From assembly GCF_030315915.2 (NCBI RefSeq), contig NZ_CP135990.1, positions 2,604,001 through 2,668,000 on the forward strand: a stretch of 64,000 bases of DNA. Reading direction: 5' to 3'. Shown here one piece after another: positions 20,633-27,799 of this stretch. The position numbers and the translations under genes were made by a program. A model generated the notes under the pieces. That model had not been told where the DNA came from. It saw nothing but the letters and a program-made list of their open reading frames with translations, and searched no databases. Origin of the DNA: Providencia zhijiangensis (lineage in GTDB: Bacteria > Pseudomonadota > Gammaproteobacteria > Enterobacterales > Enterobacteriaceae). Numbering within the stretch: position 1 is the stretch's first letter; each line of letters begins with the position of its first letter.

Positions 20633-21070
20633 ATGTATAAGAAAATATTGGTTCCTATTGATCTGTTAGAAGATGATTTAAATTCAAACATCGTCAAACA
20701 TGTGGAATATTTGGCAACATTGGGTAAGCCTGAGATTCACTTTTTCTCGGTGATCCCGAGTGTAGAACTATTTTTTGGTATTGAAGTCGCTATTTTACCT
20801 GAAAGCCATAAAAATTCGGCTGAGCGTGCAACACTCGCGATGCGGGCATTAGAAGAAGTGATCAAAGAGACTAAAATTCCAAGTTCTCAAATTACATGTC
20901 AAGTAAGCATTGGTTCAGCAAAAGACGAAATTTTAGACTATGCTAAAACCATTAATGCCGACCTGATTGTCGTCGGTTCTCATCATCCAAGCACATCCAC
21001 CTATTTATTAGGTTCGACAGCATCCGCCATTGTGCGTCATGCACAAACATCCGTGTTTGTCGTTCGTTAA
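20633..21070 (+). CDS. Universal stress protein, UspF-like
   Basis: A 145-residue single-domain Usp with KKILVPIDLL at the N terminus and the nucleotide-binding C-terminal motif VVGSHHPSTSTYLLGSTASAIVRHAQTSVFVVR, corresponding to G-2x-G-9x-G(S/T). It resembles E. coli UspF more than UspA. ATG 20633 is chosen (AGAGG upstream) rather than GTG 20627. Confidence 0.9.
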   Translation: MYKKILVPIDLLEDDLNSNIVKHVEYLATLGKPEIHFFSVIPSVELFFGIEVAILPESHKNSAERATLAMRALEEVIKETKIPSSQITCQVSIGSAKDEILDYAKTINADLIVVGSHHPSTSTYLLGSTASAIVRHAQTSVFVVR

Positions 21071-21873: not shown

Positions 21874-22086
21874 ATGTTATCTGCTGATCAAGATTTAGTT
21901 TCACAATTAATCTCCACACATCCCCGCTTTCAATCTCTCTATGAGAAGCATCACCAGTTAGATAAAGAAATTAGCAAGCTTGAAGGTCCTTCCGGTGCCG
22001 GCTATAACGAACAGGTTGCCAAACTTAAAAAAGAAAAACTGCATCTAAAAGATGAAATGCAGAGAATAATGCAAACCAGTCGATAA
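21874..22086 (+). CDS. YdcH-like small protein (DUF465)
   Basis: A 70-residue, largely alpha-helical protein with the DUF465 pattern HPRFQSLYEKHHQLDKEISKLE ... LKKEKLHLKDEMQRIM, predicted as a helical hairpin. Function is unknown in the family. A strong GAGGAGG lies before the ATG, and a terminator follows at 22200. Confidence 0.88.
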   Translation: MLSADQDLVSQLISTHPRFQSLYEKHHQLDKEISKLEGPSGAGYNEQVAKLKKEKLHLKDEMQRIMQTSR

Positions 22087-22199
22087 GGTGCCTTTAAACT
22101 ACAGCTAATCTTACTTTATCAAGTACATTGGAGCCTTAGCTTCAGTGTATTAAGCTCCAATAAAGATAGCTGTTATACAACTGGCGATAATACAGTGTT

Positions 22200-22232
22200 A
22201 ATGGCATAAGAAATTTCTCTTATGCCATTTTT
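22200..22232 (+). terminator. Intrinsic terminator downstream of ydcH-like gene
   Basis: AATGGCATAAG (22200-22210) pairs with CTTATGCCATT (22219-22229) and is followed by T residues. Confidence 0.85.
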
Positions 22233-22292
22233 GCTATTACTAGAGGTAAAAATGCTTTTATATTGATTTAATCGCCTATGAATAGTTACCTT

Positions 22293-22317
22293 AAAGATAT
22301 ATATTAAATGTATCTTT
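22293..22317. promoter_or_regulatory. NsrR-type operator
   Basis: AAAGATA at 22293-22299 and TATCTTT at 22311-22317 form a palindrome centred on 22305, with most inner bases also paired. This fits the NsrR operator, two AAGATGYATTT-like half sites separated by one base. It lies 16 bases before the start of a gene family known as an NsrR target, so control by nitric oxide is likely. Confidence 0.75.
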
Positions 22318-22332
22318 GATTGTGAGGAAACG

Positions 22333-22692
22333 ATGATGGTGGGTAAAAGAATATCTCGGGAAATCGTAACGATAGAGAAAATGATAAAAATCTATGAAAA
22401 GGCACACCCTGCTCCTGAAGACGCCCCTGAACATTACCAAACACTTTTTTCCTATGCGATTAAACGCCTAAAAAAATGCCGCTATGGTGAAGAAAAACCA
22501 GCTTGTAAACAGTGTCCTATACACTGCTACCAACCGAAGCAACGAGAGCAAATGAAAGTGATTATGCGTTGGGCCGGCCCCAAAATGCTCTATTGCCATC
22601 CCATCTTAGCAATTCGTCATCTCATCGATGATAAAAAGCCAGTCCCTGAATTACCACCAAGGCAACGCATAACATCTAATAGAGGTAACTAA
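22333..22692 (+). CDS. ygbA: YgbA family, nitrosative-stress protein
   Basis: A 119-residue protein of the family named for its nitrous-oxide-stimulated promoter; in E. coli and Salmonella ygbA is an NsrR target. The family hallmark is a Cys cluster here written CRYGEEKPACKQCPIHCY (residues ~50-67) followed by MRWAGPKMLYCHP. The Cys spacing suggests metal or Fe-S binding, but the biochemical role is not settled. GAGGAAA precedes the paired ATG codons at 22333 and 22336. Confidence 0.88.
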   Translation: MMVGKRISREIVTIEKMIKIYEKAHPAPEDAPEHYQTLFSYAIKRLKKCRYGEEKPACKQCPIHCYQPKQREQMKVIMRWAGPKMLYCHPILAIRHLIDDKKPVPELPPRQRITSNRGN

Positions 22693-23581
22693 CTCTAAGT
22701 GCAAAATATTTTACCAAGCCAATAGAAGAGTGATCCTGTAGAAACTAAATCCCCCCATGTAAATGTTAAATATATTTAACCACTACTTATTCGTCTAAAT
22801 CTTCGGTTTATTTTTACTATCCTATTGGTTTTTTGTCACTTTTTAAAACATCACGGATCCGATATTCAGTTTCTGACAAATAAAGTCTATTTACTTAAAC
22901 ACATCATCAATATTCCCCTCTCTAAAAATGACGTTCTTATAAAAATTAGTAACCAATAAAAATTAATAACCAAAAACCATATTTATAAAAAAGCCAAAAT
23001 CAATAACTCAAACCTATACATGTTAAAAATGATATTTAAATCTCAATATTTGACTTAAATTGAGCTTTTTAATGAAAATATTAAATCTTATTAATTTAAA
23101 TTATTAATTGATAATGAGACTAACGATAAAAATCATTAGAAAAATTTATTATTGATACTTTTAACGAATGTATCCCAAATAATTTACATCGCTATTATTT
23201 ATGATAAAACACAAATAATGACTACTTACCTTTAAAAGTCAAAAAAACATCAAAAAAGCGTAAAAAAACATAAAATATTTAAATCCATAAAATGGAATAA
23301 AGTTAGAATTTAAAACTGCAATTACCAGTAACCATCAGAACAAACGAATAGAACACTAAATGAGTTACTCGAAATAACCGATGAATACATGCGAATAAAT
23401 CGTAAAAACCATATTTCGAAACATTTATTAATACTTTAATTTACGATATGACATATAAAAAAACAGCTCATATAATTTTAATCATCAAAGTTATAGTGAT
23501 TTTTTATATCAATAGAAGTTAAAAAGTTGACATTTAATTTCGACTATTACTTAAAGAGCTAATTTTAATAAAGGTGCTACC
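22693..23581. other. 889-bp AT-rich gene-free region upstream of ExsA-like gene
   Basis: No ORF of useful size and no known RNA is recognised. The stretch is markedly A/T-rich, with A-tracts around 23240-23275 and 23450-23465. A TTGACA hexamer at 23527-23532 is a possible -35 element for the downstream regulator. It may hold a long regulated promoter, but nothing more can be shown. Confidence 0.5.
23557..23578 (+). promoter_or_regulatory. FourU-like hairpin covering the regulator's ribosome binding site
   Basis: In the mRNA, AUUUU (23562-23566) can pair with AAGGU (23571-23575) across an AAUA loop, and AGC (23557-23559) pairs with GCU (23576-23578) past a two-base bulge. The paired AAGG is the ribosome binding site of the ATG at 23582. 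Weak U-A and U-G pairs over a Shine-Dalgarno are typical of fourU RNA thermometers such as that of Yersinia lcrF. No folding calculation was done. Confidence 0.45.
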
Positions 23582-24397
23582 ATGAACAGCAAATTAAGTC
23601 ATCAGGTGATAAAAAAAGTTCGCATAGATAAAAATAACCCACATGCGATACTCGATTTAACCTCTAAAGGTCTTATCATCATAGAAAAAGGGGCGATTTT
23701 ATTAGAAACCCCTGCGGCAAATCAAAGCCTGCATGAAGGTGATATTCTCTATCACAAACAGGGATCATACTCGTTTAAAACAGAGAGTAATGCATTAGAC
23801 GGCGAATTCTTATGGATCTCATTGGATGATAAGTTTTTACGCGAGTACTTATCTCACTATGGTTCTCAATTAAGTGAGATCGAGCGCACTGAAAGCGCTG
23901 CAAAAGACATCATTAAATTTACAACAAACCCATTAATTAATGAGTTAAAAAATAGTTTAGAGTCATTTATTCAAACTCAGTACCCGGAAATGATTCTTAA
24001 ATTAAGGATTAATGAGCTACTCTTGTTATTATCCTACAGTGAGCAAGGCGCAACCCTATTGGCCAATTTACGACAACTCAGTAATCGCCAAGCTGAGCGT
24101 TTGCAGACCTTCATGGAAAATAATTATTTAAAAGAGTGGAAGTTAAATGAGTTTGCCAGAACGTTTGGCATGGGCTTAACAACATTCAAAGAGCTATTTC
24201 ATACTGTTTATGCGACATCACCACGTTCTTGGATCAGTGAGAAGCGCATCATGTATGCACATCAATTATTGATAAATACGTCGATGAGTATCGTGGAAGT
24301 TTCTATGGAAGCAGGCTTTTCAAGTCAGTCTTACTTTACTCAAAGCTATCATAGACGCTTTGGTTATACCCCCAGTAGGTCGCGCAAAGCCGCCTAA
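23582..24397 (+). CDS. AraC-family regulator closely resembling ExsA/LcrF (type III secretion activators)
   Basis: The 271-residue protein has an N-terminal sensor/dimer domain (about 1-160) and two C-terminal AraC helix-turn-helix motifs (about 170-271). The C-terminal half matches ExsA from memory almost word for word: LRQLSNRQAERLQ, EWKLNEFARTFGMGLTTFKE, SPRSWISEKRIMYAHQLL, EAGFSSQSYFTQSYHRRFG and YTPSRSR. N-terminal segments such as KQGSYSFKTES and LSEIERTESAAKDIIKF also fit. ExsA/LcrF activates T3SS operons and is antagonised by ExsD-type partners; none of those genes are here, so this is an orphan copy. Targets are unknown. Confidence 0.88.
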   Translation: MNSKLSHQVIKKVRIDKNNPHAILDLTSKGLIIIEKGAILLETPAANQSLHEGDILYHKQGSYSFKTESNALDGEFLWISLDDKFLREYLSHYGSQLSEIERTESAAKDIIKFTTNPLINELKNSLESFIQTQYPEMILKLRINELLLLLSYSEQGATLLANLRQLSNRQAERLQTFMENNYLKEWKLNEFARTFGMGLTTFKELFHTVYATSPRSWISEKRIMYAHQLLINTSMSIVEVSMEAGFSSQSYFTQSYHRRFGYTPSRSRKAA

Positions 24398-24419
24398 TAC
24401 CTTCCTCACGTTATATGCC

Positions 24420-24457
24420 CTGTCAGTATAGGATTGATGTCTTAGCTACACTGACAG
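24420..24457. terminator. Inverted repeat after the ExsA-like gene
   Basis: CTGTCAGT (24420-24427) pairs with ACTGACAG (24450-24457). It sits 23 bases after the stop codon, as a terminator would, but lacks a following T tract. Confidence 0.4.
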
Positions 24458-24491
24458 AAAGGCAACCCCACATACCGTTGGAAATAAAAAA

Positions 24492-24516
24492 AGAGCCTAC
24501 TATTTAAGTAAGCCCT
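24492..24516 (-). terminator. Intrinsic terminator of the coiled-coil operon
   Basis: A 10-bp stem including two G-U pairs (24492-24501 with 24507-24516) is followed by seven T residues in the minus direction, 26 bases past the coiled-coil gene's stop. Confidence 0.85.
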
Positions 24517-24541
24517 TCTTTCTATTTAGCATCTTTATTGA

Positions 24542-27500
24542 TCAGTTCGCTTGAATCACTTTCAAATCAATAATTGACATCGAATTTGGCGGCACCTCAC
24601 CGGGAATACCGTCTGGACCATAACCACCTTCAGGCTCAATATAAATTTTGACCATTCCGCCTACCCCCACTTTTTCTACGAACGAGTTCATCGGTGGTGG
24701 AAGTTGATCATAAGGTAACACCATTGGATTTTTCTCTGTATGCATAACGGTCACCTTACCATCGGTGAGTTGTTCACGCATAATCAATGTGATTTTCTTA
24801 TCTTTCACATTTGTAATTGGCGTACCTTTTTGTAAAACCTTATAGTAAGTATAGTTATCTAACTTACTGTATTTCTGCTGTTTTATATCCTGCAGGATCT
24901 TTTGATTCCGCTTTTCATTCTCTTTAGCAATAGTCGCATTATCCGTAGATGGGATTTGGATAATGGTCGGCGTCTTACCTGTAGATGTTTTTTTACTCGC
25001 TCTTAATGCTTCATTCTCTTCACGCAACTGAGTCACGCGCTGATTGAGATCCCTAATTTGCGTTTTCAATCCCTCATCCGTTGAAAATGCTTTCAAAGAT
25101 GCCAGCTCATCTTTTGCTTTCTTCAAACTATCTTGAACACTAGCAAGCTCCAGCTTAGATTTGTTATCCGCCGCTGTTTTTTCATCGAGCTGTTTCTTAA
25201 GTTGAAGCAATTCCTGATCTTTTTTCGAGAGATTCTCTGCATTAAATTTTTCAGCATCTAACTTCAACGCATTCAGTTGTTTGTTTGCTTCTAGCAACTT
25301 TTGCTCGATTTCAGCTTGCTGTTTGTTGCGATTGGCAATGTCGCTTTCAAGCTTAGCAATCAATGCTTCTTTTTCTTTGGCTTGTGACAACAACTGAGAA
25401 TTTTGAGACTCTAGCTGCTGTTTATCAGACAGTTGCGCTTTTAACGAATCTTGAATGCCTTTATTCTCTTGATCTAACTTGGTTAAAGCTTCTTCTCGGC
25501 CTTTGAGTAAACTAATTTGCTTATTCAATTCCGCCGTTAATTCTTTGACTTGTAGGTCAGTATCTTTGCCTGCAAGCTCAGTCCGTTTTTCTAATTCAGC
25601 ACGCAGTTTTTGCACTTCAGTATTTGCTTGCGCTAACTGTTTTTTCGCATCCGCATAACTTTGTTCATTCGATGCTAGCTGCGCTTGTAGTTGTGCGTAC
25701 TGATTTTGGCTATCTGCCAGTTGCTTAGCTATTTTTTCATGAGCATTTTGCTGAGTCGCCTGTTGTTTCTTCGCTTCTGCTAACTCAACATCCAGTGCAT
25801 TTTTTTGTACTAACTTGGCAGTTTGCTCAACCAATGTCGCTTGAGCTTTGTCGTTCTGCTGCGATTTTTCAGCGAGTTGAGTCAAGAGCTTCTGATTTTG
25901 CTCAGATAAAGCTTTAACTTGTTTGTCGCTAGCTTGAGCCATCAACACTGCTTTATTTTCCAGCTCTTGCTTCACGTTTTGCAAGTCTATATTAGCCTTA
26001 GCTAGCTGCTGCTTAGAGGTGGCTAATTCAGCTTCTACCGCAGATTTTTGTTTTACTTTATCTATCAGTTGCTGATTCTGTTGTTCAAGCTGCTTAACCG
26101 CATCTTGCTGTTGCTTCAGTGCTAATTGGACATCACTTTTTTGCGTTTGAGCCAGCTTAAGCTCATCCTCACGCTGCTTCAATAAGGCTTCTTGCTGTAA
26201 TAAGTTGGCATTCACAGACTTCAACTGCTCATCCGTATTGCCGGATGACTGCAATTGCTGTTTCGCATCAGATTGTAGTTTGGCAATCTCAGTGGTTAAT
26301 TGCTCGATACGCTGATGAGCATCCGTGACTTGCTTGTCTTTGTCGGCCAACTGCTGCTTCATTTGCTCAGCCAGTTGCTGATTCTGTTGTTCAAGCTGCT
26401 TAACCGCATCTTGCTGTTGCTTCAGTGCGGATTGGACATCACTTTTTTGCGCTTGAGCCAGCTTTAACTCATCTTCACGCTGCTTCAGTAAGGCTTCTTG
26501 CTGTACTAAGTTGGCACTCACCGATTTCAACTGCTCATCCGTATTGCCGGATGACTGCAATTGCTGCTTCGCATCAGATTGTAGTTTGGCAATCTCGGAG
26601 GTTAATTGCTCAATGCGCTGATGAGCATCCGTGACTTGCTTGTCTTTGTCGGCCAACTGCTGCTTCATTTGCTCAGCCAGTTGCTGATTCTGTTGTTCAA
26701 GCTGCTTAACCGCATCTTGCTGTTGCTTCAGTGCGGATTGGACATCACTTTTTTGCGCTTGAGCCAGCTTTAACTCATCTTCACGCTGCTTCAGTAAGGC
26801 TTCTTGCTGTACTAAGTTGGCACTCACCGATTTCAACTGCTCATCCGTATTGCCGGATGACTGCAATTGCTGCTTCGCATCAGATTGTAGTTTGGCAATC
26901 TCGGAGGTTAATTGCTCAATGCGCTGATGAGCATCCGTGACTTGCTTGTCTTTGTCGGCAAGTTGTTTTTTCGCATTTGTCGCTTCAATCACGCCATCAC
27001 TCAGCTGTTTTTCCAACTGTTTGATAGTGTCTAATGACTGGCTATTTTGTTTGGTAAGGTTATCCAGATTAGCTTGCTTTTCAGCAATCACTTTCTGCGA
27101 TTTGGTTAATTCATTGTTCAACCCATCGATAACAGCTTTATTATCAACAGATTTTACAACATTTTGTAATTGCTCAATTTGCAACTTACTTGCTGCAATG
27201 TCGTCACTGAGTTTAGCTATCGTCGTTTGCTTTTCAGTAATGATGCGATTTAATTCAGCAATGTCTTTATTGTAGTTAGTCAGCTTAGTGACTAACTGAC
27301 TATCAGTTAACAGCCTATTGTACGAAATAAGCTCACCAACGCCTTGAGCAACACCAAAGCGATACAGATTTTTTAATTGCTGCTGCTCAATGAGTTTTGC
27401 CAACTGAGCCAGATTGACTGAGTTATCAGTCCCTGCTTTCTTCGTGAAACTCGAAGAATATAAGCCAAGAGGATCAATAATGACTTGGTATTTGGCAAAA

Positions 27501-27799
27501 TCTTTCGCCAAATACTTAGGATTCCATTGACTACCTTGTAGCAAATAGGAAGATGCAGGCTGGTAAGATTGAGACTCAGAAGGCAACGAACAGACGTCGA
27601 TAACAGGTTTTTCTGTGCCTGCTACTTGAGCTGGTTCTGTTACTTGAACTGGTGTTGTAGGCTCAACAGGCGTTGATACCGATGCTTTTGTACTTTGAGA
27701 TTGGGATGACGTCACCGCATTCGATGATCGCTGAGCCACCTTTTTCTCTTTAGTGTTCTTTGCTTTACCCGTTGTAACTTGACGGCTTTCTTTCGGCAC
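24542..27799 (-). CDS. Large coiled-coil protein with 102-residue repeats and degenerate FKBP-like C terminus
   Basis: I do not recognise a characterised homologue. As drawn from GTG 27799 it has 1,085 residues: a Ser/Thr/Pro-rich start, a small domain at about 65-150, a long Gln/Lys/Glu-rich coiled coil (about 160-930) including three tandem 102-residue units, and a C-terminal domain from about 975 aligning with FkpA/Mip-type FKBPs (GGYGPDGIPGEVPPNSMSIIDLKVI). Several FKBP active-site aromatic residues are missing: the IPGW segment reads PPPM. No ribosome binding site precedes the GTG. The frame is continuous with the upstream signal-peptide ORF except for one TAA, so this is probably the body of a disrupted exported protein. 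Confidence 0.7.
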   Translation of the reverse strand: MPKESRQVTTGKAKNTKEKKVAQRSSNAVTSSQSQSTKASVSTPVEPTTPVQVTEPAQVAGTEKPVIDVCSLPSESQSYQPASSYLLQGSQWNPKYLAKDFAKYQVIIDPLGLYSSSFTKKAGTDNSVNLAQLAKLIEQQQLKNLYRFGVAQGVGELISYNRLLTDSQLVTKLTNYNKDIAELNRIITEKQTTIAKLSDDIAASKLQIEQLQNVVKSVDNKAVIDGLNNELTKSQKVIAEKQANLDNLTKQNSQSLDTIKQLEKQLSDGVIEATNAKKQLADKDKQVTDAHQRIEQLTSEIAKLQSDAKQQLQSSGNTDEQLKSVSANLVQQEALLKQREDELKLAQAQKSDVQSALKQQQDAVKQLEQQNQQLAEQMKQQLADKDKQVTDAHQRIEQLTSEIAKLQSDAKQQLQSSGNTDEQLKSVSANLVQQEALLKQREDELKLAQAQKSDVQSALKQQQDAVKQLEQQNQQLAEQMKQQLADKDKQVTDAHQRIEQLTTEIAKLQSDAKQQLQSSGNTDEQLKSVNANLLQQEALLKQREDELKLAQTQKSDVQLALKQQQDAVKQLEQQNQQLIDKVKQKSAVEAELATSKQQLAKANIDLQNVKQELENKAVLMAQASDKQVKALSEQNQKLLTQLAEKSQQNDKAQATLVEQTAKLVQKNALDVELAEAKKQQATQQNAHEKIAKQLADSQNQYAQLQAQLASNEQSYADAKKQLAQANTEVQKLRAELEKRTELAGKDTDLQVKELTAELNKQISLLKGREEALTKLDQENKGIQDSLKAQLSDKQQLESQNSQLLSQAKEKEALIAKLESDIANRNKQQAEIEQKLLEANKQLNALKLDAEKFNAENLSKKDQELLQLKKQLDEKTAADNKSKLELASVQDSLKKAKDELASLKAFSTDEGLKTQIRDLNQRVTQLREENEALRASKKTSTGKTPTIIQIPSTDNATIAKENEKRNQKILQDIKQQKYSKLDNYTYYKVLQKGTPITNVKDKKITLIMREQLTDGKVTVMHTEKNPMVLPYDQLPPPMNSFVEKVGVGGMVKIYIEPEGGYGPDGIPGEVPPNSMSIIDLKVIQAN
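26065..26960 (-). repeat. Three tandem 306-bp repeats inside the coiled-coil gene
   Basis: The unit is 306 bp (102 codons). The two copies nearer the protein N terminus (about 26349-26654 and 26655-26950) read as identical over roughly 290 bases, including silent positions. The third (about 26065-26348) has scattered differences. Perfect identity points to recent duplication or gene conversion. Residues about 281-579 are encoded. Confidence 0.9.

What the first reader, a model, noticed from the sequence alone, without database searches (positions are those of the whole stretch)
23582..24397. Orphan ExsA/LcrF-like type III secretion activator
The predicted protein shares long verbatim stretches with ExsA/LcrF in both DNA-binding motifs and around the interdomain linker, far closer than the general AraC family. 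Yet no secretion, chaperone or ExsC/D/E genes are found in 64 kb. It may control a T3SS elsewhere in the genome (or on a plasmid), or have been repurposed, for example for neighbouring surface genes.
Basis: partly seen in the sequence, partly recalled or inferred. Interest (0 to 1): 0.7.

Follow-up and report, generated by a model that had tools for sequence, protein, structure and literature searches.

The report
Secretion regulator that outlived its injectisome
This Providencia gene encodes a close relative of ExsA, the master switch of one type of bacterial injection needle, but no needle of that type was found in the genome; the switch looks preserved and probably now turns on a small exported pilin-like protein instead.

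Summary
Window 23582-24397 (+) is an intact 271-aa ExsA-family activator (Pfam ExsA_N 98 bits) that nests, in a tree, inside ExsA proteins from Ysc-type secretion (T3SS) loci. It is an orphan: the one T3SS found in this Providencia genome is of SPI-1/Inv type with its own InvF-like gene, and no ExsD was found. All 23 genus genomes searched carry it (one truncated), including two without a T3SS secretin over cut-off. It sits where Morganella keeps an ExsA-linked T3SS and Proteus keeps ExsA plus ExsD. So ExsA probably outlived its T3SS, under purifying selection, with the seven cited DNA-contact residues kept. A profile of T3SS ExsA boxes from other genera led to a conserved ExsA-type promoter (A-tract, GnC, 6 nt, TGnnA or TTnnA, 21 nt, -10) before an exported 114-aa pilin-like gene: 21 of 21 Providencia orthologues, and Moellerella. 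Five genomes carry a variant box before a second AraC-type regulator. Best reading: ExsA rewired from injectisome to surface or export genes. Binding is inferred, not shown; three genus genomes keep exsA but lack the pilin-like gene at the threshold used.

The parts
23582..24397 (+). orphan ExsA-family AraC activator, 271 aa
   Evidence: ORF; ExsA_N 98.3 bits and HTH_18; 4zua; tree; contact residues; dN/dS
23414..23443 (+). conserved block TTTNGAAAYATTTATTAATAYTTNRAATTA upstream of exsA, possible binding site of an unknown regulator
   Evidence: alignment; 0-4 mismatches in L049-L055 (six Providencia, one Moellerella) and 8 or more in the other loci scored, the disrupted Providencia L056 included; single match at 3 or fewer mismatches in the own genome
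23448..23476 (+). sigma70-like promoter of exsA: ATGACA, 17 nt, TATAAT
   Evidence: sequence; conserved in the alignment; start site not measured
24416..24464 (+). inverted repeat TGCCCTGTCAGTATAG...CTACACTGACAGAAAGGCA downstream of exsA; a similar sequence in Moellerella is the leader just before its ExsD-like ORF, so possibly the scar of a lost exsD
   Evidence: comparison by eye of the sequences (seen in three of the four other Providencia shown, L049, L050, L052, not in L053); Moellerella ExsD-like ORF 20.8 bits, below cut-off
24542..27799 (-). convergent neighbour: coiled-coil protein with FKBP domain; conserved neighbour in Providencia, Moellerella and Proteus, not thought to be a target

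Best explanation
The gene is a vertically inherited ExsA whose Ysc-type T3SS (and, in Providencia, ExsD) was lost, and which was kept as a free-standing activator. As described for P. aeruginosa it should bind head to tail through two HTH motifs at an A-rich/GnC/TGnnA box and recruit RNA polymerase to a -10 element 21 nt downstream. Its best-supported direct target in this genome is an exported 114-aa pilin-like protein (G000:C1:2209739-2210083, box 2210174-2210230). In some Providencia it probably also drives a second AraC-type regulator beside a giant repeat protein. With no ExsD found, its activity is probably set by the amount of ExsA made from its own conserved promoter, or by an unknown ligand of the fast-diverging N-domain. 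Shown by computation: family, orphanhood, synteny, constraint, conserved box. Inferred: the T3SS loss itself, binding, activation, function of the target, control of ExsA activity.
For: Family and DNA contacts. Tree: window with Providencia, then Moellerella, Proteus, Morganella, Xenorhabdus, Photorhabdus (96/95), nested among T3SS-linked ExsA of Aeromonas and Pseudomonas. Synteny: usp-ecotin-ygbA upstream of exsA in Providencia, Moellerella, Proteus and Morganella; in M. morganii T3SS genes lie there. ExsD in Proteus, weak in Moellerella, 0 of 24 Providencia. exsA without a T3SS secretin over cut-off: 2 of 24 genus genomes, 5 of 5 Xenorhabdus, 1 Moellerella. dN/dS 0.019 and 0.024. Target: profile from 13 T3SS boxes of other genera; two control hits in a Photorhabdus T3SS stretch; sites before the orthologous gene in two Providencia; box in 21 of 21 orthologous promoters, 16 strict, against shuffle rates 0.0011 strict and 0.0036 loose; strict box also in Moellerella; among 249 ORF upstreams in 312 kb of the own genome only this gene has it (its stretch was fetched because of it). 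Second target: five genomes.
Against: No binding or expression data. The first profile hits were at noise level (E 1.44 and 3.04, among 22 hits, and the own-genome site was not among them); the case rests on conservation and geometry. The profile's control was partial: of eight ExsA-linked T3SS stretches only one rang. In 5 of 21 promoters the G of TGnnA is T; none of the five second-target boxes matches the strict pattern, four of five the looser one. G013, G019 and G021 keep exsA but have no pilin-like gene at E 1e-6, so another target is needed there. Another AraC regulator could own the box. PMC2610376 (passages) gives other ExsA motifs (TNAAANA; TTTAGN4TT in V. parahaemolyticus). Morganella T3SS proteins form a very long branch apart from Photorhabdus, so a single ancestral T3SS is not proven. 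No ExsA box in exsA's own promoter was found.
Confidence: 0.74

Rival explanations
1. The orphan ExsA activates the resident SPI-1/Inv-type T3SS at G000:C1:160-183 kb.
For: A T3SS is present in the own genome, and an SctC over cut-off in 22 of 24 genus genomes.
Against: That T3SS carries an InvF-like AraC gene and a small regulator-like ORF whose HilA resemblance is recalled. No box above a shuffle in 54 kb. exsA kept where no T3SS secretin passes the cut-off: 2 of 24 genus genomes, 5 of 5 Xenorhabdus, 1 Moellerella.
Confidence: 0.08
2. It regulates adjacent genes (coiled-coil FKBP protein and lipoprotein downstream, or the bactofilin that is its divergent neighbour in other genera).
For: Conserved adjacency in Providencia, Moellerella and Proteus; a bactofilin lies divergently upstream in the Proteus, Moellerella, Xenorhabdus and Morganella loci tested.
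Against: Strict ExsA pattern: 0 matches in 64 kb. Downstream genes are convergent and were not found beside exsA in Xenorhabdus. In Providencia the bactofilin is elsewhere (23 of 24 genomes have one; own copy at C1:1212835).
Confidence: 0.07
3. A decaying relic with no current role.
For: The locus may be the remains of a larger island; one Providencia (G002/L056) has lost the 5' end of the gene behind an integrase-like ORF; N-domain diverged.
Against: Full-length match in 22 of 23 genus genomes (G002 partial); dN/dS 0.019 and 0.024 in the two window pairs that gave a value, though dS is high; contact residues kept; promoter conserved.
Confidence: 0.05
4. The conserved box is real but belongs to another AraC-family activator, so ExsA's target is unknown.
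For: Related AraC proteins could read similar boxes; a second AraC gene carries a weak ExsA_N match (about 31 bits in G007 and G022); exsA is kept in three genomes without the pilin-like gene.
Against: The box has the GnC and TGnnA elements that ExsA contacts according to passages of PMC12648661. The second AraC gene is missing from its syntenic locus in the own genome (not searched for elsewhere) although the box is intact there.
Confidence: 0.18

Closest known systems
ExsA of Pseudomonas aeruginosa and T3SS-linked ExsA of Aeromonas, Photorhabdus and Pseudomonas
   Same: ExsA_N domain plus two HTH motifs; the window has all seven cited DNA-contact residues, and across the Morganellaceae copies aligned six are invariant and the seventh is R or K; same box grammar at the inferred target.
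   Different: No Ysc T3SS and no ExsD found in the genome (ExsC and ExsE not searched for); N-domain only 26-32% identical; one convincing site in this genome; box tolerates T for G in TGnnA.
LcrF/VirF of Yersinia (not fetched; from passages of PMC3962397)
   Same: ExsA-like activator on which a surface adhesin gene outside the secretion machinery, yadA, depends: a precedent for adhesin control.
   Different: Plasmid-borne beside a working Ysc T3SS.
ExsA-ExsD pair at the same site in Proteus (L061, L063, L064, L069, L082, L088, L093, L097)
   Same: Same chromosomal neighbourhood, no Ysc-type T3SS genes found in the flanks held.
   Different: ExsD still present (39.7 bits in L069; three of three Proteus genomes over cut-off).
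InvF/HilA regulation of SPI-1-type T3SS
   Same: Such a T3SS is in this genome.
   Different: Has its own AraC gene; no sign of ExsA control.

Membership tests
ExsA/LcrF-type activators | ExsA-type N-terminal regulatory domain | tested here: met
   PF22200 98.3 bits vs cut-off 27; 4zua E 3.9e-25
ExsA/LcrF-type activators | Two C-terminal HTH motifs with the cited base-contact residues | tested here: met
   L199 T200 K203 Q249 Y251 T253 R258, matching residues cited in PMC12648661
ExsA/LcrF-type activators | Falls inside the clade of T3SS-linked ExsA | tested here: met
   57-row tree; LcrF and P. aeruginosa ExsA not included
ExsA/LcrF-type activators | Encoded with, and controlling, a Ysc-type T3SS | tested here: not met
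   Encoded-with part: two FHIPEP genes, one in an SPI-1/Inv-type T3SS, the other taken as flagellar but not classified; one SctC over cut-off in the own genome
ExsA/LcrF-type activators | ExsD anti-activator present | tested here: not met
   0 of 24 genus genomes; the method rings in three Proteus and one Photorhabdus genome
ExsA/LcrF-type activators | ExsC and ExsE partners present | not tested
   no search made
ExsA/LcrF-type activators | ExsA-type box (A-rich, GnC, TGnnA, about 21 nt to -10) at a target promoter | tested here: met
   pilin-like promoters: 16 of 21 strict, 21 of 21 loose
ExsA/LcrF-type activators | Binds the box and activates transcription | not testable with these tools
   needs bench work
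Chaperone-usher fimbrial subunits (target protein) | Full pilin domain | tested here: inconclusive
   NCBIfam LpfA matched by 8 of 11 members, best E 3.6e-6; the member shown is far below its cut-off; Pfam PapJ 15 bits, cut-off 25

The most novel reading that the evidence does not exclude
A T3SS master activator that outlived its injectisome in at least two lineages of Morganellaceae and was rewired in Providencia and Moellerella, with DNA recognition nearly unchanged, to a minimal regulon: an exported solitary mini-pilin, and in some species a second ExsA_N-type regulator beside a giant repeat protein.
Probability: 0.6. Interest if true: 0.72.

Novelty: new variant of a known kind. Interest (0 to 1): 0.62.

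Why it matters
It would show a virulence master regulator being kept and rewired after its machine was lost, with the old binding grammar still readable in a new promoter. It also gives a family-wide natural experiment (T3SS + ExsA + ExsD in Photorhabdus; ExsA + ExsD without a Ysc-type T3SS nearby in Proteus; ExsA alone in Providencia and Xenorhabdus) for asking how ExsA works without its secretion-coupled switch, and it warns that an exsA hit in a Morganellaceae genome does not imply a Ysc-type T3SS.

Tried and rejected
Control of the resident T3SS, control of neighbours, relic, and another owner of the box: see rivals. ExsA box in the window: 0 strict matches, 0.23 expected; the best weight-matrix hit, 19.3 bits at 20804, lies inside the usp gene and the shuffle reached 20.5. 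The exsA promoter block as a family of sites: single copy in the genome. Rfam on 22000-25000: nothing. T3SS-protein tree to prove one ancestral Morganellaceae T3SS: Morganella on a very long branch, inconclusive. The Photorhabdus stretches around its T3SS show no match to the ygbA-side neighbours. Other profile hits taken as chance: 20 of 22, about half of them inside genes, G003:C33:373198 (E 0.0023) and G000:C1:2802917 (E 0.0099), both inside coding frames, the first scoring better than the G012 site that I do count. Proteus hit L215 before a pilus-like ORF (E 0.034): box too close to the start codon, set aside. PDB matches of the pilin-like family to OspA (E 1.8e-4): low-scoring repeat matches, not believed.

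Not in print, as far as searched: ExsA, Providencia; ExsA, Xenorhabdus; ExsA, Proteus mirabilis, AraC; ExsA, Morganella; Providencia, Inv-Mxi-Spa; ExsA, T3SS-independent, regulon; 8 of 309 listed; no title or start of abstract listed describes an orphan ExsA in these genera. Open-licence PMC only.

Full report
What is there. The ORF 23582-24397 (+) is real and intact, 271 aa. It carries ExsA_N (98.3 bits, cut-off 27) and an AraC HTH region. In the PDB the ExsA N-domain is the best match (E 3.9e-25), far ahead of the next, which aligns in the HTH region only. Positions L199, T200, K203, Q249, Y251, T253 and R258 equal the residues that passages of PMC12648661 name as contacting GnC and TGnnA or chosen there as DNA-binding mutants (alignment). 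In the Morganellaceae copies aligned, six of these are invariant and the last is R or K.

Genome context. The window is G000:C1:2604001-2668000 of a 3.80-Mb genome. The nearest named relative found is Providencia alcalifaciens DSM 30120 (94% identity; that scan may leave out the window's own or a very near genome). Only one ExsA_N match at E 0.01 exists in the genome. There are two FHIPEP genes. One belongs to a T3SS at C1:160-183 kb whose SctV, SctC, SctJ, SctI, SctW and SicA-like proteins match NCBIfam models over their cut-offs. Its SctV scores 1054 bits with PRK15337, which I recall as the InvA-type model, and it has an InvF-like AraC gene (74.5 bits, below cut-off). The other FHIPEP gene was taken as flagellar without a test. 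PMC3542290 (passages) describes a T3SS-1 island shared by Providencia and Proteus mirabilis; that it is this one is my inference. Of 24 genus genomes, 22 have an SctC over the cut-off; G013 and G021 have none, yet both carry exsA (90.6 and 94.5 bits). The extra SctC of G004 and of G005 scores best with PRK15346 (recalled as the SPI-2 type); the SctV of G014's second T3SS and that of G019 score best with the InvA-type model. ExsD was found in 0 of 24 genus genomes. As control, the same search on seven genomes rings over cut-off in one Photorhabdus and three Proteus, below cut-off in Moellerella, and not in the one Xenorhabdus or the one Morganella tested.

Origin. A named scan, capped, kept the 80 best of 505 relatives. 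From these I chose 56, plus the window, for a tree. It places Providencia with Moellerella (100/99), then Proteus (95/68), Morganella (98/94), Xenorhabdus and one unassigned Enterobacteriaceae MAG (97/96) and Photorhabdus (96/95), next to Aeromonas (94/94), with Pseudomonas beyond. All ten Photorhabdus loci and three of four Morganella loci have exsA inside T3SS genes; no Ysc-type T3SS gene was found beside exsA in the Providencia, Moellerella, Proteus and Xenorhabdus loci, apart from the ExsD matches in Proteus. Genome-wide, no SctC over cut-off was found in 5 of 5 Xenorhabdus or in Moellerella; 4 of 4 Proteus have one, not typed here, in three of them on another contig than exsD. Upstream genes usp, ecotin and ygbA are shared by Providencia, Moellerella, Proteus and Morganella, and a bactofilin plus a GNAT-like gene (by eye) by Proteus, Xenorhabdus and Morganella. 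In M. morganii FAM24679, T3SS-type genes, among them a SycD-like chaperone, follow within a few kb of this bactofilin; in M. psychrotolerans DI-3 only scraps remain around exsA. The simplest history is a T3SS at or near this site that was lost at least twice while exsA stayed. Against it: the Morganella T3SS proteins sit on a very long branch not joined to Photorhabdus, and the Photorhabdus T3SS lies in other surroundings. In Moellerella the gap between exsA and the ExsD-like ORF has an inverted repeat whose likeness follows exsA, without exsD, in the window and in three of the four other Providencia shown: a possible scar.

Constraint. Pairwise dN/dS is 0.019 (window-L049) and 0.024 (window-L050), with high dS (1.5 and 4.4); three further window pairs gave no value because synonymous sites are saturated; L052-L054 gave 0.050. 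Photorhabdus pairs gave 0.030-0.036, Proteus 0.054-0.083, Xenorhabdus 0.039-0.047, Morganella 0.047-0.068. The DNA-binding half is 83-97% identical between the window and three other Providencia, the N-domain 56-91%. The exsA promoter has a conserved block and a near-consensus sigma70 promoter.

Target. Scanning T3SS loci of Pseudomonas, Aeromonas and Shewanella recovered boxes of the form A-tract, GNC, 6 nt, TGNNA, 20-22 nt, TANNNT. GnC and TGnnA come from PMC12648661; the A-tract and spacing are recalled and were fitted on these loci. A profile of 13 such boxes finds two sites in a Photorhabdus T3SS stretch, one just upstream of an ExsC-like gene (resemblance recalled), but none at E 1 in the seven other ExsA-linked T3SS stretches of that call. 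Run on six Providencia genomes it gave 22 matches at E 10 or less; two (G003, E 1.44; G008, E 3.04) lie before the same small exported gene with a -10 element 21 nt on. The own-genome site was not among the hits. That gene is found in 21 of 24 genus genomes, own genome included. All 21 promoters keep the A-tract, GNC and the spacing to the -10; 16 have TGNNA and five TTNNA, while the spacer has diverged. The strict pattern is met by 16 and the looser by 21 of 21, against shuffle rates of 0.0011 and 0.0036; these promoters share ancestry, so they are not 21 independent events. The Moellerella gene at the same place (30% identity over 104 aa) has a strict box. In 312 kb of the own genome, 249 ORF upstreams hold just this one match; the stretch containing it was fetched because of it.

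A second profile, from 15 of these promoters, run on 22 genomes, gave the known site in the 10 Providencia genomes of that set that have the gene (E 2.2e-10 to 9.5e-14), which is by construction for nine of the ten. New full-length matches appeared in G018 (4.9e-4) and G008 (1.3e-3), plus a partial one in G012 (0.053). All three lie before one AraC-type regulator gene, next to a 2209-2592-aa repeat protein where that could be read whole. Two more genomes (G007, G022) have the gene with the same box. The second element is TTAAA or CTAAA in all five. The own genome lacks this regulator at the syntenic place. G013, G019 and G021 gave no strong site (best E 0.176, 0.343, 0.023).

The target protein. 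114 aa with an apparent signal peptide (by eye), a pilin-like GxIxFxGxIVxxPC start and two cysteines; weakly like fimbrial major subunits and PapJ, too short for a full pilin, with no chaperone or usher recognised by eye among the ORF starts of the 10 kb around it. dN/dS 0.08-0.15. Its function is unknown; an exported accessory or adhesin-like role is a guess. LcrF dependence of yadA in Yersinia (PMC3962397 passages) is a precedent for an ExsA-like activator acting on a surface adhesin.

Working. Inferred: ExsA is made from its own promoter, is not held by ExsD, binds the box and activates the small exported gene. Not shown: binding, activation, signal. PMC7303211 passages say ExsD binds the N-domain beta barrel by backbone contacts, which fits an N-domain free to diverge once ExsD is gone. 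Verdict: ordinary as a family member, unusual as a conserved T3SS regulator without its T3SS and with a readable new target.

Noticed in passing
G000:C1:181221-183722 (L005): In the own SPI-1-type T3SS the translocator-like ORF is 421 aa with only a weak match (35 bits) to its model, and transposase-like ORFs (by eye) follow directly; the translocator operon may be interrupted.
   Followed up: no
L104:8323-12618 (Morganella psychrotolerans DI-3): Scraps of a T3SS (SycD-like TPR protein and two small ORFs) around an intact exsA at the ygbA site: a T3SS apparently caught while being lost. The genome has one SctC over cut-off where strain L117 has two.
   Followed up: partly
L069:10829-11689 and the like in seven other Proteus loci: Proteus keeps an ExsA-ExsD pair with no Ysc-type T3SS genes found beside it; an anti-activator without its secretion system.
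   Followed up: partly
   Followed up: partly
L108 / G162 (Aliivibrio sifiae ATCC 33715): exsA present but no SctC over the cut-off in the genome: possibly another orphan outside Morganellaceae.
   Followed up: no
window 24542-27799: The coiled-coil FKBP protein varies greatly in length between Providencia species (ORFs of 1072 to 1775 aa), apparently through internal repeats.
   Followed up: no
L237, L239, L241: Second AraC gene lies between a giant repeat protein and an MBOAT/SGNH-like gene set (resemblance recalled); in the own genome the regulator is missing at this place.
   Followed up: partly
window 24416-24464: Inverted repeat after exsA, alike in several Providencia and Moellerella; role unknown, possibly terminator or leader scar.
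   Followed up: partly
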